From an uncultured Schlesneria sp. (GTDB taxonomy: Bacteria; Planctomycetota; Planctomycetia; Planctomycetales; Planctomycetaceae), in contig CAILLA010000087.1 of assembly GCA_903834925.1 (NCBI GenBank), positions 1 to 57,960 on the forward strand: a DNA stretch of 57,960 nt, given 5' to 3'. Made by a program: the position numbers and the translations under genes. Positions 50,701 to 57,960 of the stretch are shown here, one piece after another; within the stretch, counting starts at the first letter, position 1; each line of letters begins with the position of its first letter. The notes below the pieces were generated by a model. The model did not search any database, was not told the origin of the DNA, and was given only the letters and a program-made list of their open reading frames with translations.

Positions 50701-50944
50701 AAGAGGAGTCCTGCAACGAACACCGGGCTTTACGGGACCCGTTGAAGTAACGCTGGTGGGACTTCCGGCAGGATATACCGTCCAGCCAGGCAACGTTGCT
50801 GCCGATCAAGATGCGTTTGAGATCATCGTGCGAGGACCGAAGGTCGCCGCTGAGACTCCAATCGCCAACGTCAAGCTGCGCGTCACATCGGCTGCCAGTC
50901 TGCTTATTCCTGAAAGCCCGGTTAACCTCAAATCAGTACCTTGA
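47795..50944 (+). CDS. large exported LamG / PPC-repeat protein
   Basis: A 1049-residue exported protein with no catalytic motif. A signal peptide (FAFVLQFILLAEISVG) precedes a LamG/concanavalin-A-like domain (about 30-280; DASKQQYIEVADGADVDSP, IGDFRLFPRALSAEEIKKL). Next comes an IPT/TIG-like Ig segment (ISSLSQPGLQAGQTTQLVIN). The remainder is beta domains of the bacterial pre-peptidase C-terminal (PPC) type (VYFAGTKGQRVVADVELKR; GRIATKGERDTYLLNVTAGQ). Similar proteins occur beside PSD1/DUF1501 genes in planctomycetes and may bind polysaccharide at the cell surface; no such gene is adjacent here. The end overlaps the convergent PhzF remnant by 12 bases. Confidence 0.8.
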   Translation: MLTYARRFAFVLQFILLAEISVGQDQNSPIASQAVVHFTFAEENGSAKDAATVGQVLDEGKLINDPIRVASPFWNQAGKKALQLDASKQQYIEVADGADVDSPVGVTVAMFLVNLTEPADAAFHGLFAKRGMADGKYSTNYGINFVAAGDNFQVYIHDGNEYRVATYGSKDAVPYRKLTYITATYTAGDAPGQDADTDVDDVRMQYFINGEPLVPKSATKGFINGSEAWTLDVNLAGLVNNLPLSIGRSEVAGEYTSCVIGDFRLFPRALSAEEIKKLFLEVAGANVNELIAADKPVARTAPVISSLSQPGLQAGQTTQLVINGTDLGPDPTVLFPFPEVKFDVVEGAVPNRLVVNVTIPSETVPGLYPLWVKSKAGISKSIPLAVDRLPQVAMGSSAEKPATLPAAFFGSLSGGQQQQVYFAGTKGQRVVADVELKRLGGTANPVIEIKSPAGTPLKIGWGQNSLRGDARAELTLPADGIYTVELHDLTFNAPGTFPFRLKVGDLKLVDGFLPAAAVPGQIEIEPIGSGFATGTKLAGTFSLQNSSGAGSLSLGLDAGVGGSLPFVALSRGTELVETTPNAGGTFQTIDATFTLTPPKPVAISGRIATKGERDTYLLNVTAGQKIKFTLQSDSLSSTLEGEVKVLGHPGGNVLAQTSDQPTIGDPTLEFAVPAGIGQIQIQVRDLFGRGSVRSFYRLVIEPADQPKFGLILNTPTADLPEDGSAIIELQVNRSGYAGPIQLSVVGDDSVKISPNQIPANQQGKVLLRLVRGGPNQGAKSSLMRLVGESVGVEPPIKRIANLQTVATPTFTDTLAVGTSAPAGLSVELSQLPTVLFRGTTFDLGFDVKRHAGHPATSLPVRLALDSTEPVRKRDPNNPAAGTFPVVAIAPRMILPNEPEKSSVKLFIPIEVAEPVIDFVIKVEATPHAYSDRVLSTAYSQPFHVEIKIGVTPKLDDATLAFAGEVDHKLRGVLQRTPGFTGPVEVTLVGLPAGYTVQPGNVAADQDAFEIIVRGPKVAAETPIANVKLRVTSAASLLIPESPVNLKSVP

Positions 50945-51490
50945 TCGAGATGTGACGATGACACCGCGCACCGGAAGTTTCTCGAGCTTGCGATAGTCGG
51001 GACTTATGGCCCTGACCGTCTTTGCGGAATCAATTACCGCCAGATAATCAAACCGACTTCGTCCCAAATAAACCGGCTCGACCCCAAGTGAAATTGATAG
51101 TTCGGGTGGTATTTCTACCACAGCTGCCGGGGTTGCCGGGAAATCAAGCTCAATAAAGTCGCCATCTTGTGTACAAGTGAGTACGCCACTACGAGTTTGA
51201 AAGTATAGAGGAACTTGTTGAGGTACGAGGTCTGAAGACCATAATGCATGAGCCGTCGCCAATGTGGCGTGCCCACAAAGATCCACTTCCACAGTGGGGG
51301 TAAACCAACGCAATTCCAGCCCGTCGTCACGTTGCCGCACAAATGCAGTTTCCGAAAGGTTCATTTCCGCAGCCACCGATTGCATCCATTTCGTATCTGC
51401 GTCCTCGTTAAGCCAACAGACCGCTGCGGGGTTCCCTCCAAATGGCTGGTTGGTAAATGCATCGACTTGCCAACATTTGACGGAGGGCAT
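50933..51490 (-). pseudogene. PhzF-family isomerase, C-terminally truncated
   Basis: The N-terminal 180 residues fit PhzF: KCWQVDAFTNQPFGGNPAAV, the catalytic-Glu region EMNLSETAFV and LRWFTPTVEVDLCGHATLA. The match ends abruptly after GVIVTSRS, two codons before a stop. The second half, with the family's D-P-V-T-G-S-A-H region, is missing; complete members have about 260-290 residues. The opposite strand there is the end of the LamG gene, and no other frame restores the rest. A deletion that joined the two convergent genes is the likely cause. PhzF-like proteins isomerise or epimerise small acids; this one is probably inactive. Confidence 0.7.
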
Positions 51491-52264: not shown

Positions 52265-52972
52265 TCATGTGTTCATCAACTGAAATACCTGCTCCAGAAA
52301 GTTCATCTGGTCTCGATTTGGTGACGCTTGAGGACGATGGGTTCGAATGAGATTGATCGCTTCGGTTGCGGAATGGCAGATTCCCGAATACCCAAGCCAG
52401 GCCGCAGCGAAAGTCACACTTCGACCGTGACCATTTGCGCAACAGACATATATCCTCTGTTGCCGCTTCAATAGCGATTCATACGCTCGTCGGCACGATT
52501 CCCAATCCAGAATGCATCCGTCGAGCGTCGGAATACAAATTGTTGGAAGCCGCTCTCGAACAGAACACGGGGTCGGAAACTCGGCGGTGAGATCAACGAA
52601 CATCGTGATCCCATCGGGTAGTGATTCGTAATTGCAAATTCGTCCGACAAAGAGATCTGGTGTAACCTCGCTGTAGAGCGGCGAACGAACAATCACGTTT
52701 TGAAGAGTCCACACAAACCGGAAGAATGACAGTAACGGTGTCATCAATACCGCCGGTATCCATCGCAATTTTCCTTGCTCGGTTTTGCCAAAAATCCACG
52801 ATGAGTTCGTGAAATAAGCAAAACTGACGGCAATCGCATTTGCAGTGAACCAGCCAATCATCAAACGGAGTAAGCTTGAGCTTGCAGGATTCGCCTGAAA
52901 CGCGAGTGCCGCACTCAGAGCGGCAAAAACAACTGCAAACAAAATTCTCCGGCTGATGAAACGGCCTTTCAT
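52265..52972 (-). CDS. membrane-anchored Cys-dependent (dual-specificity-type) phosphatase
   Basis: A 235-residue protein with two or three hydrophobic segments (about 9-27, 35-56, 72-90), then a DSP/PTP-fold domain. The catalytic loop is C178-ANGHG-R184 (Cx5R with the usual second-position Gly near the Arg). D151 in TLDGC is a candidate general acid. The C-terminal AINLIRTHRPQASPNRDQM is the standard DSP ending that packs on the loop. It starts inside the stop of RlaP-B (ATGA, 4 bases), so it belongs to the RNA-repair-like operon as its last gene. Substrate may be a phosphoprotein, phospholipid or, as in metazoan capping phosphatases of this fold, RNA; unknown. Confidence 0.8.
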   Translation of the reverse strand: MKGRFISRRILFAVVFAALSAALAFQANPASSSLLRLMIGWFTANAIAVSFAYFTNSSWIFGKTEQGKLRWIPAVLMTPLLSFFRFVWTLQNVIVRSPLYSEVTPDLFVGRICNYESLPDGITMFVDLTAEFPTPCSVRERLPTICIPTLDGCILDWESCRRAYESLLKRQQRIYVCCANGHGRSVTFAAAWLGYSGICHSATEAINLIRTHRPQASPNRDQMNFLEQVFQLMNT

Positions 52973-53727
52973 GCATTCCCTCGCAGTCGAACTCTTACGA
53001 GCAAATCATTCAATGCGGTGACGGCAGACGGCATTTCAGGCAGTTGGCTTTCGTCGAAGGCGGTTTGTAAGACCGATCGAAGCCTTTCGTACTCTCTCTC
53101 ATGAAAACGAAGGTCTGCCGCCTCCAAACGTCCTAACTCTGGTCCACCCGTTTTGCGTGCAATCAGATCCGGGATGAAAGATCGCTTCGCGTCGTCGTTC
53201 AGTCTGATGAGATTCGCTTCAACCGTTCCTGTCCTCATCAGATGAATACCCGTCAGCAGCACCCGATAGACATACAATAAAGGCTTGACGTGCGGCGGGT
53301 CCTCCTTGAGGAACAGTTTCCATTGCGTTTCGGCAAATCCAAAATAGTGATGAGCATGATGTTTTGTGATGCAGTCAGCGGCGATCGTCTTTAACTCGTC
53401 GTGTTCTGGCGTCGTAAAGACGATCAGAGGAGAAAATAATTGTTCCAGGACATAGCCGTTTTTCTTCAGCATCAGCCAAAAGAACTTTTTGGCATCATGT
53501 GTTACGAGGTCAATTTCAAGTCCGTCATGGATGCCCGACTTCTCAACCGTCTCTTCGGATTCGGTCATTCCGATGACATCCCGTAACGGCAAGAGATGCA
53601 CACCGCGCAGGTCGAAATCAGAATCCGGCGACGGAAATCCATAAAGGTGCGCGCCACTGATCGTGGCAAACAATAGTCCATAAGGATGTTCGGCGACCTG
53701 CTTTTGCAGTCGTTTATCGATGTTCAT
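52969..53727 (-). CDS. RlaP-type nucleotidyltransferase B
   Basis: A 252-residue polymerase-beta-fold nucleotidyltransferase of the PF10127 type, described as RNA-repair-associated RlaP. The active-site signature is SGAHLYGFPSPDSDFDLRG with the metal Asp pair D37 and D39; the third acidic position may be in LEIDLVTHD (about 70-78). The rest is helical (KFFWLMLKKNGYVLEQLFSP; HHAHHYFGFAETQWKLFL). It overlaps RlaP-A upstream and the phosphatase downstream by 4 bases each. Nucleotide addition to RNA or to a small molecule is a family inference. It is clearly different in sequence from RlaP-A, so not a recent duplicate. Confidence 0.85.
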   Translation of the reverse strand: MNIDKRLQKQVAEHPYGLLFATISGAHLYGFPSPDSDFDLRGVHLLPLRDVIGMTESEETVEKSGIHDGLEIDLVTHDAKKFFWLMLKKNGYVLEQLFSPLIVFTTPEHDELKTIAADCITKHHAHHYFGFAETQWKLFLKEDPPHVKPLLYVYRVLLTGIHLMRTGTVEANLIRLNDDAKRSFIPDLIARKTGGPELGRLEAADLRFHEREYERLRSVLQTAFDESQLPEMPSAVTALNDLLVRVRLRGNA

Positions 53728-54674
53728 GGAAGTTCCTCCGACATCGCCGCGCGTCTTGCCTTAATTAACAGGGCATTGACCCGTTCATAGTCTGGCCGCT
53801 CGGGCAGTTTGGATTCTGACAACGCACGATCGAATTTTATGTGCAGGCTCAGTCGCCACTTTTCCGTTTCGTCCCAGGATACTTCGCCCTTTTTAATCGC
53901 CAGCAGTTGGTCCCGGTGTTCCTCTACTCGCACAGGAACGAAGCCATGTTTCAGCACGCGAATTCCGGAAATCAATAGTCGAATCAGATGCATCACATGC
54001 TTCCATTTCACTTCGCCCTGATTACGAAGATCTGACTGCATCTTCTTGAACTGCGACATCACGTAGCCGTTGTAGGTCTGGTAAACCAGCCTTGAAAGAA
54101 ACACAGACCGCATTCGCAACAATTCTTCTGCCAGTGGAGTGGCCTTCTCCACCAGTGGTGTATAGAGACATTCCAGTACGTTCGGGTTCGCCTTCAGGGC
54201 CAGTACCAGAAAACGCTGTAACTCCCAGTAATGTTTCTGAGTCTCATAGCACTCGAGTTGATCCGGCACGCCGTACAACGACCAGTGCAGTTCGGCAGAC
54301 GGCAGGAAGATCCCCCGATAGTCGGTGTCTGACTGGTCATCGTCGAGCCCATATGCCCGCGAACCAATCACACATCGAAGAATCACACGGTCGTACAAAT
54401 TACTGCTAGCAGCAGAAATTTTAGCATCGCCGATCTCACCTTCCTTGAAATGAGCCAGCATCACAATGTCTTCCCGCAAAAGAGCATGCTCGCCACCATC
54501 AGAAAAACGGATTCGATAAGCATGATCCAGATCACTCGGCGAACGGACAATCACCCCGACCGCACCCCGTGGATGCAGTGTCCGACCATTTTGACCGACG
54601 ATTTCCCGCAAAGAAACGACTTGCGTCCCTTCGGAAAAAATCAGATTCGGGTTTTGATGAACTCGTTCAGTCAC
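53724..54674 (-). CDS. RlaP-type nucleotidyltransferase A with N-terminal beta domain
   Basis: A 316-residue relative of RlaP-B. GTG 54674 is chosen because AAGGA sits 7 bases upstream; a TTG at 54698 lacks this. Residues 1-80 form a small beta domain (GTQVVSLREIVGQNGRTLHP, RGAVGVIVRSPSDLDHAYRI), like SH3/KOW-type barrels that bind nucleic acid or protein. The catalytic domain has GSRAYGL (104-110) and DQSDTDYRG with D116 and D118. A helical C-terminal part follows (YVMSQFKKMQSDLRNQGEVK; MHLIRLLISGIRVLKHGF). The small conserved protein ends 45 bases upstream; the next nucleotidyltransferase overlaps it by 4 bases. Confidence 0.85.
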   Translation of the reverse strand: MTERVHQNPNLIFSEGTQVVSLREIVGQNGRTLHPRGAVGVIVRSPSDLDHAYRIRFSDGGEHALLREDIVMLAHFKEGEIGDAKISAASSNLYDRVILRCVIGSRAYGLDDDQSDTDYRGIFLPSAELHWSLYGVPDQLECYETQKHYWELQRFLVLALKANPNVLECLYTPLVEKATPLAEELLRMRSVFLSRLVYQTYNGYVMSQFKKMQSDLRNQGEVKWKHVMHLIRLLISGIRVLKHGFVPVRVEEHRDQLLAIKKGEVSWDETEKWRLSLHIKFDRALSESKLPERPDYERVNALLIKARRAAMSEELP

Positions 54675-54719
54675 GTTGACATTCCTTAGCGACGCCAAAA
54701 GGCTCTATTCGCTTGGTCT

Positions 54720-55073
54720 TCAATGGTGCATTTCCAAAAGTATTACGTTGGTATGTCCGTTTTCAGTCCACTCTGAAGCGGTAAAACAGTATTCATTGGG
54801 AAAGTCATCAAGCCGGAATCCGTATTCTACGGCTTTTGGCTCAACCAAATGAGGTTTCACTTCCTTTTTCCAAAAACGGTAAGCGTCCTCGACCGCAATC
54901 CAATTCAGTCTCTCACCCCCGTTGGCAACAGCGAAACTCACCGATCCCTGCCGAAGCAGACTGGATATGTGCTCAATTCCGACGTATTGGCCTCGTTCCA
55001 ATGTCAGATCACCGTGATCGTTCCAGAGTCGCGTAAGAGGTAACTGATTGACGATTCGCTTTTCTGGCCGCAT
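54720..55073 (-). CDS. conserved small protein of unknown function
   Basis: A 117-residue protein. ATG 55073 has GGAG 7 bases upstream; a longer reading starts at 55085. The pattern LPLTRLWND.G, GIEHISSLLRQGSVSFAVAN, GERLNWIAVEDAYRFWKKEV and a final FTASEWTENG...VILLEMHH is one I recall from planctomycete and cyanobacterial hypothetical proteins. It is probably a soluble alpha/beta domain, with no catalytic motif. It sits between the Sir2 and RlaP genes on the same strand. The 217-base gap upstream, with a hairpin, makes a separate promoter possible. Confidence 0.7.
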   Translation of the reverse strand: MRPEKRIVNQLPLTRLWNDHGDLTLERGQYVGIEHISSLLRQGSVSFAVANGGERLNWIAVEDAYRFWKKEVKPHLVEPKAVEYGFRLDDFPNEYCFTASEWTENGHTNVILLEMHH

Positions 55074-55239
55074 GGAAAGCTCCATATACGCAACAACCGT
55101 CTGTCAGTTGTTATTTAACTCGCAATTCAGTGGTTTGTATCACATCCAGCAGGGTCGGCATGCGGCCGCTAGCTACGAATTTCATGGAATTGCTTAACGA
55201 GAATATCGGATCGTACGAAGTCTCGGGTAAGATCGAATA

Positions 55240-55261
55240 GAAGTCGAATCTATTCGACTTC
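55240..55261 (-). terminator. hairpin after the Sir2 gene
   Basis: A 9-bp perfect stem GAAGTCGAA/TTCGACTTC with loop TCTA lies 30 bases past the Sir2 stop on the minus strand. There is no strong T run, so it is at best a partial terminator or processing site inside the cassette. Confidence 0.4.
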
Positions 55262-55290
55262 AGAACATTTAATCTCCCAATCAACCTGAA

Positions 55291-56103
55291 TCAATTTTGT
55301 ATTTCGAACGTATCGTGAATTAACTTCGGCAACACGGTCCCGGCATCCCCTTCCAGCCAGCAGCCGCTGCGGGGTTGCGGGTCAATTGTTACCACTAATG
55401 TTCCGGCAGCTTTGGCGTTGTCTGGCAGCATCGCTGCCGGATAAACGGCACCGGATGTTCCCACTGAGAGTAACACGTCACATTCTTCGACAGCCTCGCA
55501 TGCTTTGGCCCATACCGCTTCTGGTAAACCATCTCCAAACAGGACGACGTTCGGTCGATGACGGCCCATCCAATCGAACGGATATTGTTGTTGCAATTCC
55601 AATATCAAAGTCTCTGCCGACTGCTTTTTACTCGTATATTGATGTAAACAGTCCGCGATCCGCATCAAATCTTTTCGCTCGAATCGCCGGACCAACTTAC
55701 CCGCTGAAGTATCTGAGACTTCTAACAGCGATCCGTGAACTTCCAGGACCTCGCTCGAACCCGCCGACTGATGAAGGCCATCAATGTTTTGTGTGATGAC
55801 CGTTGTTTTGACTCGTTGTTCCATCCGCACAATGGCTTGATGCCCGCTGTTCGGCTCTGCTTTGGCAACAGGCTCAATCACATTGAGAACGAATTCGGCA
55901 ACCGACAACGGTTGAGTGACAACCGTTGTCAACAGACCATTCCAAGTCGCATAGAGTTCAGGCGGAAATCGTTGCCAAAATCCATCCGCGTCACGAAACG
56001 TCGGAATACCGCTTTCGGCAGAGATTCCAGCGCCCGTAAAAACGACGACTCGCTTCGCTTTGCGTAGCGCCAGGACAGCCGCAATCCAGTTGTCGATATC
56101 CAT
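55291..56103 (-). CDS. Sir2-family NAD-dependent protein without the zinc site
   Basis: A 270-residue sirtuin-fold protein. The NAD site is well kept: GAGISAESGIPTFRD (24-38), TQNIDGLHQSAGS and catalytic His in VHGSLLE, then VGTSGAVYPAA and VTIDPQ. The two Cys pairs that hold zinc in classical sirtuins are absent: the region between HGS and RPNVVLFGD is RFERKDLMRIADCLHQYTSK. It could be a deacylase, an ADP-ribosyltransferase or a NADase, as in several antiviral Sir2 proteins. ATG 56103 is chosen; TTG 56109 precedes it. It is 88 bases downstream of the Thg1-like gene on the same strand. Confidence 0.8.
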   Translation of the reverse strand: MDIDNWIAAVLALRKAKRVVVFTGAGISAESGIPTFRDADGFWQRFPPELYATWNGLLTTVVTQPLSVAEFVLNVIEPVAKAEPNSGHQAIVRMEQRVKTTVITQNIDGLHQSAGSSEVLEVHGSLLEVSDTSAGKLVRRFERKDLMRIADCLHQYTSKKQSAETLILELQQQYPFDWMGRHRPNVVLFGDGLPEAVWAKACEAVEECDVLLSVGTSGAVYPAAMLPDNAKAAGTLVVTIDPQPRSGCWLEGDAGTVLPKLIHDTFEIQN

Positions 56104-56191
56104 GGTCAAGTATCCATCTGATACGGAGTTTCATCGAGGCACGTTTAAAGGCAAACATCACATAATAAACCTATCTGGAGCCTCATCGGAT

Positions 56192-56953
56192 TTAAGATTC
56201 GGCAAAGAAGGACTCAATAAACCGGCTGTAGTCATCTTTCATGGGCAGTTCCAAATCTCGTTTGATCCGGCGGCGGCTCGATATCACACCACTGCCAGTC
56301 ACCGGATTGCTAGAGGGCCTTTCGAAATCTTCCCAATAAAGGCCGATTCCTCGCTTTTGCCAAAGAGGAACGTCATTAAAGTTGATCCCCTGCTCGAATA
56401 ACAGTTCATTTTTCTGGCTAATTGATAATCCGAAGAGCTTCTCTGTGGCGGCCTGTTCGGCGAGCCCCTGTTTGCGATACGTCCAATAGCAATAGGCGGA
56501 CAATGCGTTTCTGGCGGCATCCTCGTTCCGCCAGCGGAAGTAGTCGACGACCAGGCCGGCGTTTGGCAATTGCGAGATCCGGCAATCGAACGTGGCCACG
56601 CGGCCGAGCAGCAGCGAGAACTTGGCACTCGCTTCTCCCGCCAGTGTGGAGTTGTATTTCCGCATCTTCCGTCCGAAGTGTTGCTCGTCCCGGTCAAAGA
56701 GTAATGAGATTTCATCGCTTTCGGTATAGGCATAAAGCACTCGAAACCCACAATTCATCAGACTCTCGGTCGTCTCCAGCATCAGGTCACGAAACCGCTC
56801 ATCGAATGGAGCTTCGAATTGACAGACCTCCTTCGTTAATCGTGTGAAACTGCGGCCATCGAGCCGAGCGACGATGAACATTTCTGGTAACACGCAGTAG
56901 TCAGCAGCGGTCTCGAAGACTCTCATTTTCTGGTCAAGGTCGTCAAACTTCAT
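56192..56953 (-). CDS. Thg1-like 3'-5' nucleotidyltransferase (TLP)
   Basis: A 253-residue homologue of tRNA(His) guanylyltransferase. Thg1-like proteins add nucleotides in the 3'-to-5' direction and repair the 5' ends of damaged RNAs. The metal and nucleotide motif VARLDGRSFTRLTKE gives D32, and YTESDEISLLF gives D80/E81, the counterparts of the Thg1 catalytic Asp pair. A C-terminal helical part follows (AYCYWTYRKQGLAEQAATEK). ATG 56953 lies inside the end of the kinase gene (11-base overlap), which argues for joint production. In bacteria TLPs are sparse and found with RNA-processing genes, as here. The substrate is probably a 5'-truncated RNA, not known which. Confidence 0.88.
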   Translation of the reverse strand: MKFDDLDQKMRVFETAADYCVLPEMFIVARLDGRSFTRLTKEVCQFEAPFDERFRDLMLETTESLMNCGFRVLYAYTESDEISLLFDRDEQHFGRKMRKYNSTLAGEASAKFSLLLGRVATFDCRISQLPNAGLVVDYFRWRNEDAARNALSAYCYWTYRKQGLAEQAATEKLFGLSISQKNELLFEQGINFNDVPLWQKRGIGLYWEDFERPSSNPVTGSGVISSRRRIKRDLELPMKDDYSRFIESFFAES

Positions 56954-57389
56954 CGCGCCATTCCTCAACAACAAACCGACCGTCCTCCAATCGGACGTAG
57001 TACAGCTTGTCGAATCCTTCTTTCCAGTTTGGCAGTTCAAGTTTCTTCGCGGTCGAATAGATCGCCACATCGGGAACACGTTCAGCCTCGGGGCGGCCAG
57101 CGTTTCGACGAAGACAACTCTCGATTTCCGATTGAAAATAGTATCCAACGACCTGAAACCGAGCCGCTTTAGCCGCTTCGATATATTTGGCTCGTTCGGC
57201 TCGCACCGAATTGGTGTTGTCAATGACGAATCGCTGATCAGTCTCGAGACAGACCTCAAGCAGTCGTTTTTCACGATTTCGGGTTTTCAGGAGATCGAGG
57301 CTGATTCGGAGGTGGGTCGTGAAGAATCGCTCCTTGAAGAACGACGACTTTCCCGACCCCTGAATCCCGATGAATACAACCGCTTCCAT
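56943..57389 (-). CDS. P-loop kinase resembling the T4 Pnk kinase domain
   Basis: A 148-residue AAA_33/Pnk-type kinase. The P-loop is GIQGSGKSS (8-16). FVIDNTNSVRAERAKYIEAA (from about residue 54) is the 'D-N/D-T-N' element that follows the lid in polynucleotide-kinase-like ATPases, with Arg residues further on (SCLRRNAGRPEAERVPD) for phosphate contact. RNA 5'-kinase activity would produce the 5'-phosphate ends that ligation or Thg1-like repair needs. GGGGTGG precedes the ATG. It is the first clear gene of the cassette and overlaps the Thg1-like gene by 11 bases. A small-molecule kinase is an alternative. Confidence 0.85.
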   Translation of the reverse strand: MEAVVFIGIQGSGKSSFFKERFFTTHLRISLDLLKTRNREKRLLEVCLETDQRFVIDNTNSVRAERAKYIEAAKAARFQVVGYYFQSEIESCLRRNAGRPEAERVPDVAIYSTAKKLELPNWKEGFDKLYYVRLEDGRFVVEEWRDEV

Positions 57390-57440: not shown

Positions 57441-57773
57441 TCAAAAGCCACCTTTGGAAAGGCAGCACTTTTTGAAAAGTCTCCCGGAACCGCAAGGACA
57501 CAAATCGTTGCGCCCTAGTTTTTCTTCAAGCTGTTTATCGCCATGAACGATTCTCACGCCCCGTTTTACGCTCGTTTCCGAAGGAAAACCCTGTCGCCGT
57601 TTGCTCATGGTTTCGAAAGGAATCGTGTTCTTCAAAGTCGTTTGTTCGCATGATTCACCTTCGGTTTCTGGATGATTCATTAAAAAATGAGGATCGAGTT
57701 CTGTAGGAACACCCACGCAGATGCGCAAGTGACAATTCGACCACGCCGCAGGTTCACTGTAACCGTTCAACAA
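57441..57773 (-). CDS. SEC-C motif protein, start uncertain
   Basis: The C-terminus [16 protein letters not shown] is a complete SEC-C zinc motif, as at the end of SecA and many small proteins, where it binds zinc and partner proteins. The rest (about 85-90 residues) has no known domain; it includes [18 protein letters not shown]. The frame stays open toward the window end without an ATG, and the TTG at 57773 is only the nearest start; ATG 57680 is the other candidate. It lies 51 bases upstream of the kinase on the same strand and could be the first gene of that operon or an unrelated neighbour. Confidence 0.5.
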
Positions 57774-57859
57774 ACCGGGAAGCCCTGGGTTCTCAACAAC
57801 AAAAAAGCCGGTTGATTCGATTCTGCACTTTAGGCGATCCTCGGTTGGGGGATCGGATT

Positions 57860-57960
57860 TCAGAAGCAGAGGTTGAAGAGTGATTTCAATTTGCTGAAGA
57901 ATTGTACTGGATCTGGGTCTGCTGGCAGAGGTTTGAGGAATTCTTCGTGCAGCATTTCCC
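57860..57960 (-). CDS. C-terminus of a gene cut by the window edge
   Basis: On the minus strand the last 33 codons read [20 protein letters not shown], then [12 protein letters not shown] and a stop. This looks more like coding sequence than the frame that continues the SEC-C protein upstream. The product cannot be recognised from so short a piece. Confidence 0.35.

What the first reader, a model, noticed from the sequence alone, without database searches (positions are those of the whole stretch)
52265..57389. Candidate RNA end-repair / RNA-damage-response operon
Seven consecutive minus-strand genes encode a Pnk-like kinase, a Thg1-like 3'-5' polymerase, a Sir2 protein without zinc site, a small conserved protein, two RlaP-type nucleotidyltransferases and a membrane Cys phosphatase. 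Three junctions overlap by 4-11 bases. Kinase and Thg1-like enzyme both act on RNA 5' ends, and RlaP proteins are known from RNA-repair gene clusters. Together they could phosphorylate, rebuild and tag broken RNAs, with Sir2 linking the process to NAD. No ligase is visible, so either it lies outside the window or the system does not re-ligate. I do not know of this exact combination.
Basis: partly seen in the sequence, partly recalled or inferred. Interest (0 to 1): 0.85.

Follow-up and report, generated by a model that had tools for sequence, protein, structure and literature searches.

The report
RNA end-repair operon lacking a ligase
A row of planctomycete genes looks like a kit for rebuilding damaged ends of RNA molecules; relatives carry much the same kit together with an enzyme that glues RNA pieces, but here that enzyme is missing and an NAD-using protein sits in the row.

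Summary
The seven minus-strand genes are real and most named roles hold: PNK-like kinase, Thg1-like polymerase, zinc-less Sir2, orphan small protein, two RlaP nucleotidyltransferases, membrane dual-specificity phosphatase. The conserved unit is smaller: PNK-Thg1-Sir2-RlaP1-RlaP2. It recurs at the orthologous locus of one congener (G415, L231), with pairwise dN/dS of 0.11-0.18. Of 163 loci searched, the phosphatase recurs in none, the small protein only at the locus fetched for it.

Context supports RNA repair. Congener G509 has PNK-Thg1-RNA ligase-HD/kinase-RlaP1-RlaP2; G283 has PNK-Thg1-ligase-HD/kinase-Sir2; other planctomycetes and two Deinococcus plasmids place the RlaP pair with Hen1 and Pnkp. 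The window's genome gave no match to the Hen1, Pnkp-ligase and RNA_ligase profiles, but has RtcB on other contigs. Most likely this RNA end-rebuilding operon lost its ATP-dependent ligase and kept Sir2.

PNK-Thg1 pairing, Thg1-ligase linkage and sirtuins in phage RNA repair were already predicted in print. Verdict: new variant of a known kind; biochemistry untested.

The parts
57441..57608 (-). SEC-C motif protein, 55 aa (accessory; recurrent neighbour)
   Evidence: PF02810 2.4e-9 on the longer open ORF 57441-57959; conserved core MSKRR...CCL; at 8 of 80 RlaP1 loci and 11 of 29 Thg1 loci; absent from L231 by tblastn at 1e-8
56943..57389 (-). PNK-like 5'-polynucleotide kinase, 148 aa, single P-loop kinase domain (core)
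   Evidence: AAA_33 5.7e-12; TIGR01663 PNK-3'Pase kinase part 2.8e-13; nearest solved chain is a bifunctional polynucleotide phosphatase/kinase, 7.4e-11; dN/dS 0.176 against L231
56192..56953 (-). Thg1-like 3'-5' polymerase (TLP), 253 aa (core)
   Evidence: PF04446 1.8e-32, PF14413 4.8e-13; nearest solved chain 5axk, a Thg1-like protein, 1.1e-28; overlaps PNK by 11 nt; dN/dS 0.110
55291..56103 (-). Sir2-family protein with NAD/catalytic motifs (GAGISAESGIPTFRD, TQNIDGLH, VHGS) but no zinc cysteine pairs, 270 aa (core in this lineage)
   Evidence: PF02146 6.2e-38; alignments; cysteines; dN/dS 0.127
54720..55085 (-). Small protein of unknown family, 121 aa (window-specific insertion, not core)
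   Evidence: no Pfam, PHROG or PADLOC match; among 163 loci only at L107, fetched for it
53724..54674 (-). RlaP1: SH3/Tudor-like N-terminal barrel plus RlaP nucleotidyltransferase domain with DxD but no conserved third carboxylate, 316 aa from GTG 54674 (core)
   Evidence: PF10127 8.6e-42; column counts; model pLDDT 88; Foldseek
52969..53727 (-). RlaP2: RlaP nucleotidyltransferase with complete DxD...D site, 252 aa (core)
   Evidence: PF10127 3.9e-53; D37, D39, D73 invariant in 45 of 45; model pLDDT 91; Foldseek
52265..52972 (-). Membrane dual-specificity-type Cys phosphatase (CX5R), 235 aa (window-specific, not core)
   Evidence: DSPc 2.1e-8 and PTP-SAK 3e-6 over their cut-offs; no tblastn match at 1e-3 in 163 loci

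Best explanation
The core PNK-Thg1-Sir2-RlaP1-RlaP2 is an RNA (most likely tRNA) end-rebuilding operon, derived from a larger planctomycete RNA-repair operon that also held an RNA ligase and an HD/kinase protein. Proposed steps: PNK phosphorylates a 5'-OH left by cleavage; the Thg1-like protein activates that 5'-phosphate and adds missing nucleotides 3'-to-5' against the opposite strand; the RlaP1-RlaP2 pair, with RlaP2 as the catalytic subunit and RlaP1 as an RNA-binding or structural partner, restores nucleotides at the 3' side; Sir2 uses NAD to remove a terminal 2'-phosphate, as proposed for phage repair sirtuins. With no ATP-dependent ligase found, the products are rebuilt ends rather than re-sealed nicks. 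Shown here: families, gene order, recurrence, low dN/dS, absence of three profiles in the genome. Inferred: every enzymatic step, the pairing of RlaP1 with RlaP2 as a complex, and co-transcription.
For: Orthologous five-gene core in G415 with gaps -11, 71, 7, -4 nt and amino-acid identities 84-91%. Same slot between Thg1 and RlaP1 holds RNA ligase and HD/kinase in G509 (PF09414 5.5e-36). PNK-Thg1-ligase-HD/kinase-Sir2 in G283, visible N-terminal part of Sir2 83% identical over 58 aa. PNK-Thg1, RlaP pair, Hen1 and Pnkp in one row in L147; SECC-PNK-Thg1-ligase-HD/kinase-NIF phosphatase-RlaP1-RlaP2 in L125. RlaP pair between Hen1 and Pnkp in two Deinococcus plasmids. PNK next to Thg1 at 28 of 29 further same-family loci and 14 of 20 phylum loci. 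Thg1 and RlaP pair co-occur in genomes: 9 of 20 with Thg1 against 15 of 267 without, Fisher 3.9e-6. G-1 of tRNA-His is encoded in both tRNA-His genes found, so Thg1 is not needed for it. TLPs repair 5'-truncated tRNAs in vitro (PMC3701042, passages).
Against: The exact five-gene order is seen in only two genomes of one genus. Most RlaP1 loci (59 of 80) show no Hen1, Pnkp or RNA ligase in the stretch held, many cut by contig ends. Sir2 is rarely linked: four homologue loci fetched (L108-L111) hold none of the repair genes. In L115, a syntenic relative, PNK-Thg1 is gone and Sir2 is broken while the RlaP pair stands. Window junctions Thg1/Sir2 (88 nt) and Sir2/small (205 nt) leave room for separate transcripts. 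11 of 15 genomes of the genus lack Thg1. The RlaP folds match drug-modifying and signalling nucleotidyltransferases best. No activity has been measured.
Confidence: 0.62

Rival explanations
1. Remnant: a formerly complete Pnkp/Hen1 or RNA-ligase repair operon that lost its ligase and is on its way out, the remaining genes having no joint role.
For: Ligase and Hen1 profiles absent from the genome; L115 shows decay at the same locus, with PNK-Thg1 missing and Sir2 broken; the window RlaP1 groups with Hen1/Pnkp-linked relatives L117, L116 and L118.
Against: All five core genes are intact in two congeners with pairwise dN/dS 0.11-0.18 (no significance test was made).
Confidence: 0.15
2. Nucleotide-signalling or NAD-depleting anti-phage system: RlaP makes a nucleotide signal and Sir2 is the NADase effector.
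For: Nearest folds of RlaP1 and RlaP2 include the Hailong nucleotidyltransferase HalB; sirtuins are known defence effectors (PMC9503650, passages).
Against: PADLOC gave only a weak pAgo hit for Sir2 (0.0041) and nothing for the other six proteins; the RlaP pair sits with Hen1/Pnkp or RNA ligase at 21 of 80 loci; the Sir2 is a bare domain of 270 aa.
Confidence: 0.1
3. Chance neighbours or at least two transcripts: PNK-Thg1 and the RlaP pair are separate modules that merely lie side by side.
For: Each module occurs without the other: no RlaP relative within the stretch held at 20 of 20 phylum Thg1 loci; the RlaP pair often stands alone.
Against: They share a row or island in L125, L147, L128, L231, L232, L245, G181 and G238, and co-occur in genomes outside the window's family, 6 of 16 against 13 of 256 (p 2.6e-4; sample overlap assumed).
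Confidence: 0.08
4. Thg1 matures tRNA-His and the neighbours are unrelated housekeeping genes.
For: The Pfam name of PF04446 is tRNA-His guanylyltransferase.
Against: Both tRNA-His genes found encode G at -1 opposite C73; only 21 of 294 genomes of the phylum have Thg1.
Confidence: 0.03

Closest known systems
Bacterial Thg1-polynucleotide kinase neighbourhoods (PMC2904730, 2010; abstract and passages seen)
   Same: Kinase next to Thg1, proposed to make the 5'-phosphate that Thg1 uses; some neighbourhoods with RNA ligase or a macro domain
   Different: The passages seen mention no RlaP pair and no Sir2 (0 occurrences of sir2)
Pnkp/Hen1 RNA-repair operons (PMC4411300; only the search listing and start of abstract seen)
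   Same: The RlaP1-RlaP2 pair of relatives sits between Hen1 and Pnkp
   Different: The window's genome has neither Hen1 nor the Pnkp ligase domain
RlaP, RNA-ligase-associated Pol-beta nucleotidyltransferases (PMC7824862, passages; the defining 2016 paper is not held)
   Same: Both proteins score over the PF10127 cut-off
   Different: A tandem pair with one member lacking a conserved third carboxylate, in a genome where three ATP-dependent ligase/Hen1 profiles gave no match
Phage sirtuin RNA-repair neighbourhoods (PMC9503650, section 3.7.3 read whole)
   Same: A Sir2 gene without a macro partner beside RNA end-processing genes
   Different: Cellular, zinc-less, with Thg1 and RlaP instead of 2H, cREC or Nudix; whether it is of the same sirtuin clade was not tested
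Rtc operon (RtcB/RtcA; PMC7790460, search listing only)
   Same: Bacterial RNA-repair operon
   Different: RtcB lies on other contigs here and uses 5'-OH ends (established knowledge), which PNK would remove

Membership tests
Thg1-like protein (TLP) | Thg1 palm and C-terminal domains with the metal-binding carboxylate motifs | tested here: met
   PF04446 1.8e-32, PF14413 4.8e-13; RLDGRSF and TESDEIS align with solved Thg1-like proteins
Thg1-like protein (TLP) | Template-dependent 3'-5' addition to 5'-truncated RNA | not testable with these tools
   Known for homologues in vitro (PMC3701042, passages)
Polynucleotide 5'-kinase | PNK-type P-loop kinase domain | tested here: met
   TIGR01663 kinase part 2.8e-13; solved PNKP 7.4e-11; the scores are far below the equivalog cut-offs
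Polynucleotide 5'-kinase | Phosphorylates RNA 5'-OH | not testable with these tools
   No assay
RlaP (PF10127) | RlaP nucleotidyltransferase domain over the curated cut-off | tested here: met
   144 and 181 bits against 23
RlaP (PF10127) | Complete three-carboxylate active site | tested here: inconclusive
   RlaP2: D37, D39, D73 in 45 of 45. RlaP1: D124 and D126 in 47 of 47, but the position judged equivalent to D73 is Q in 40, E in 5, D in 2 of 47; equivalence set by hand from the modelled strands
RlaP (PF10127) | Linked to an RNA ligase | tested here: not met
   No PF16542 or PF09414 match in the genome; RtcB on other contigs
Pnkp/Hen1 repair system | Hen1 and the Pnkp ligase domain | tested here: not met
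   the control genome Deinobacterium chartae rang in both
Sirtuin | Sir2 fold signature with NAD motifs and catalytic Asn/His | tested here: met
   PF02146 6.2e-38; alignments
Sirtuin | Zinc-binding four-cysteine module | tested here: not met
   Four cysteines at 152, 202, 208, 248, no CxxC pair; alignment
Phage repair-sirtuin clade | Membership of the distinct sirtuin clade of PMC9503650 | not tested
   256 phage records have a Sir2 match under 60% identity; no tree was made
Anti-phage defence system | Match to a known defence-protein model | tested here: not met
   PADLOC: seven proteins, one weak hit

The most novel reading that the evidence does not exclude
A ligase-free, NAD-dependent RNA end-rebuilding pathway: Sir2 strips terminal 2'-phosphates, PNK and the Thg1-like enzyme rebuild the 5' strand in reverse, and a two-subunit RlaP (structural RlaP1 with an SH3/Tudor-like barrel, catalytic RlaP2) rebuilds the 3' strand, so that damaged tRNA acceptor stems are restored at both ends without any sealing step.
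Probability: 0.2. Interest if true: 0.8.

Novelty: new variant of a known kind. Interest (0 to 1): 0.55.

Why it matters
The roles of bacterial Thg1-like proteins and of RlaP in the cell are open; the papers seen call them predictions or in vitro activities. A five-gene operon that joins kinase, reverse polymerase, RlaP pair and an NAD-using sirtuin gives one compact set to test. Congeners with and without the ligase pair offer a natural comparison of rebuilding with and without sealing. A sirtuin inside cellular RNA repair would extend the phage-based proposal to bacteria.

Tried and rejected
Small protein: no Pfam, NCBIfam, PADLOC or PHROG match of weight, one homologue in 60 other same-family genomes; left unexplained. 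Phosphatase as a partner (for example an RNA 5'-triphosphatase trimming Thg1 products): a thought only; rejected as core because it recurs in none of 163 loci. Phage origin: RlaP1 had 6 relatives in viral contigs, one of them close (62%); Thg1 as a single protein had none in viral contigs, but 111 phage records hold more distant Thg1 relatives; not pursued. Promoter and terminator scans: 2 promoter-like sites against 5.2 expected, 7 terminator-like against 7.5 expected; uninformative. PDB sequence search with the RlaP2 alignment: no credible match. First idea that Sir2 replaced the ligase in its slot: weakened by G283, where Sir2 and ligase occur together, so ligase loss is now preferred. RlaP2-Pnkp single ORF in L155: in-frame reading in a metagenome assembly, not relied on. 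L125 and L237 come from contigs of the same length with the same gene spacing and are probably the same DNA, counted in separate tallies. Co-occurrence tests: the RlaP-pair list was compiled by hand, the two samples (294 and 288 genomes) are assumed to be nested, and shared ancestry is not corrected for.
Full report
Observation. The seven reported ORFs are present on the minus strand at 52265-57389. Profile searches give AAA_33/PNK-type kinase, Thg1 with its C-terminal domain, Sir2, two RlaP nucleotidyltransferases and a dual-specificity-type phosphatase; the small protein has no family. Three junctions overlap by 11, 4 and 4 nt; the others are gaps of 88, 205 and 45 nt. The window is an entire contig of a 9.02 Mb draft genome in 307 contigs, 99.99% complete by the tool's figure.

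What is conserved. Among 170 genomes of the same family, 35 have Thg1; I fetched the surroundings of 33 of the 34 besides the window's (G434 was left out). In G415, same genus, the locus is orthologous: the MAKKASSI protein, the PhzF-like protein, the large 1049-aa-type protein and the ABC genes follow in the same order, and the row reads PNK-Thg1-Sir2-RlaP1-RlaP2 with gaps of -11, 71, 7 and -4 nt, without the small protein, the phosphatase or the SEC-C gene. Pairwise identities are 84, 87, 89, 91 and 85% and Nei-Gojobori dN/dS 0.18, 0.11, 0.13, 0.13 and 0.15 (no significance test). The phosphatase has no match in 163 held loci and the small protein only at L107, the locus fetched for it, where none of the repair genes is present.

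The same row with a ligase. In G509, same genus, the row is PNK-Thg1-RNA ligase-HD/kinase-RlaP1-RlaP2. In L125, another Planctomycetaceae bacterium, it is SEC-C-PNK-Thg1-RNA ligase-HD/kinase-NIF phosphatase-unknown-RlaP1-126 aa-RlaP2. In G283 it is PNK-Thg1-RNA ligase-HD/kinase-Sir2; only the N-terminal part of that Sir2 is visible (83% identity over 58 aa; the rest is withheld). In L147, a Pirellulales bacterium, SEC-C-Hen1-NIF-RlaP1-R2K ATP-grasp-RlaP2-PNK-Thg1-Pnkp stand in one row. In G181 and G238 PNK-Thg1 and the RlaP pair lie about 11 kb apart in one island with Hen1 and Pnkp. The simplest reading is a larger ancestral row from which the window's lineage lost ligase and HD/kinase.

How often. 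PNK is beside Thg1 at 28 of 29 further same-family loci and at 14 of 20 phylum loci. RNA ligase is within the held stretch at 13 of the 29, and directly next to Thg1 at 10 of them by my reading; Hen1 and Pnkp at 5; RlaP1 at 5; Sir2 at 1, L231. Of the 80 best RlaP1 loci kept from 582 in GTDB species genomes, 73 have RlaP2, 16 Hen1, 15 Pnkp, 18 either, 4 RNA ligase, 3 Thg1, 2 PNK, 1 Sir2; 21 have any of Hen1, Pnkp or RNA ligase and 59 have none in the stretch held, many being cut by contig ends. The RlaP1-RlaP2 pair is itself strongly kept: of 74 loci where both were called the ORFs overlap or abut in 46, 32 by exactly 4 nt (starts are mechanical), and they form one ORF in L092, L096 and L103, 3 of 27 loci. 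Two Deinococcus plasmids hold Hen1-RlaP1-RlaP2-(one gene in D. ficus)-Pnkp, so the link crosses phyla.

Genome co-occurrence. Thg1 occurs in 21 of 294 phylum genomes, any RlaP in 64 of 288, Hen1 in 23 of 288. Leaving out the window's genome, 9 of 20 with Thg1 have the RlaP pair against 15 of 267 without (Fisher 3.9e-6); Thg1 with Hen1 3.3e-5; pair with Hen1 1.4e-6. Outside the window's family it is 6 of 16 against 13 of 256 (2.6e-4). The pair list was made by hand, the samples are assumed nested, and common descent is not corrected for.

Ligase. The window's genome gave no match at E 0.001 to Hen1_L, PNKP_ligase or RNA_ligase, with controls ringing. RtcB is present as two genes on contigs C135 and C138. 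RtcB joins 5'-OH ends (established knowledge), so PNK would work against it. Other ligase families were not searched, and the genome is a draft.

A relative in decay. L115, titled uncultured Schlesneria, is syntenic: SEC-C-Sir2-RlaP1-RlaP2 with the same downstream genes, but PNK-Thg1, the small protein and the phosphatase are absent and Sir2 is broken by a frame change and has lost the Asn of its NID motif. In a quick tree of 86 RlaP1 sequences the window and L115 are sisters (97), next to the Hen1/Pnkp-linked L117 (84), inside a group of ten with four Hen1/Pnkp-linked rows (99). Ligase context changes at least 18 times on that tree, partly an effect of contig ends.

Proteins. The Thg1-like protein is nearest to solved Thg1-like proteins (5axk 1.1e-28). 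Two tRNA-His genes found in the genome both carry G at -1 and C at 73, so it is not needed for G-1. The kinase matches the kinase domain of PNKP (7.4e-11). The Sir2 keeps its NAD and catalytic motifs but has no cysteine pairs. RlaP2 has D37, D39 and D73 in 45 of 45 relatives; RlaP1 has D124 and D126 in 47 of 47 but Q in 40, E in 5, D in 2 at the position that I judge equivalent to D73. Models: RlaP1 pLDDT 88.1, pTM 0.70; RlaP2 pLDDT 91.2, pTM 0.88. Foldseek finds the Hailong nucleotidyltransferase HalB and the aminoglycoside nucleotidyltransferase ANT(4'') for both, with overall TM-scores of only about 0.3-0.5, and Tudor/SH3 barrels for the RlaP1 N-terminus. So RlaP1 may be a non-catalytic partner; this is inference.

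Mechanism. Inferred: PNK makes the 5'-phosphate, the Thg1-like protein rebuilds the 5' strand, the RlaP pair restores 3' nucleotides, Sir2 clears a 2'-phosphate with NAD. The first coupling was proposed in 2010 (PMC2904730, passages), the RlaP role in PMC7824862 (passages), the sirtuin role for phages in PMC9503650 (section read); in vitro 5' repair by bacterial TLPs is reported in PMC3701042 and PMC6471195 (passages). None was tested on these proteins.

Print. Seven library searches (listings only) showed no paper describing PNK-Thg1-Sir2-RlaP together; the library lacks most subscription papers and the 2016 survey of RNA-repair systems, which may cover parts of this.

Verdict. A real, partly conserved RNA-repair-type operon; a ligase-less, sirtuin-bearing variant of known systems. 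Two of the seven genes reported are probably passengers.

Noticed in passing
window 50933-51490 (-): PhzF-like isomerase gene matches only positions 1-190 of 281 of its profile and overlaps the end of the convergent 47795-50944 gene; the ORF in L231 is longer.
   Followed up: no
L115:2600-6900: Syntenic relative that lacks PNK-Thg1 and has a broken Sir2 next to an intact RlaP pair.
   Followed up: partly
L092, L096, L103: RlaP1 and RlaP2 in one ORF of 499-572 aa.
   Followed up: no
L122:11703-12758: ADP-ribosylglycohydrolase gene (PF03747 2.3e-65) overlapping RlaP2 by 4 nt, another ADP-ribose link.
   Followed up: no
L083, L116, L147 between RlaP1 and RlaP2: R2K-type ATP-grasp genes inserted between the two RlaP genes; an AbiEii-type nucleotidyltransferase in L085.
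   Followed up: partly
L125:10930-11310 and L152:2359-2733: 125-aa protein without a Pfam family, 68% identical between the two, between RlaP1 and RlaP2.
   Followed up: no
L162, L175, L181-L182, L184, L186-L187, L189-L194: Cyanobacterial RlaP1 genes, most with RlaP2 beside them and without Hen1 or Pnkp in the stretch held.
   Followed up: no
window 54720-55085 (-): Orphan 121-aa protein with one 43% identical homologue, in G412.
   Followed up: partly
L098:11086-12105: Gene upstream of an RlaP pair that reads like an RNA 3'-phosphate cyclase (RtcA); recognised by eye from recall, no profile run.
   Followed up: no
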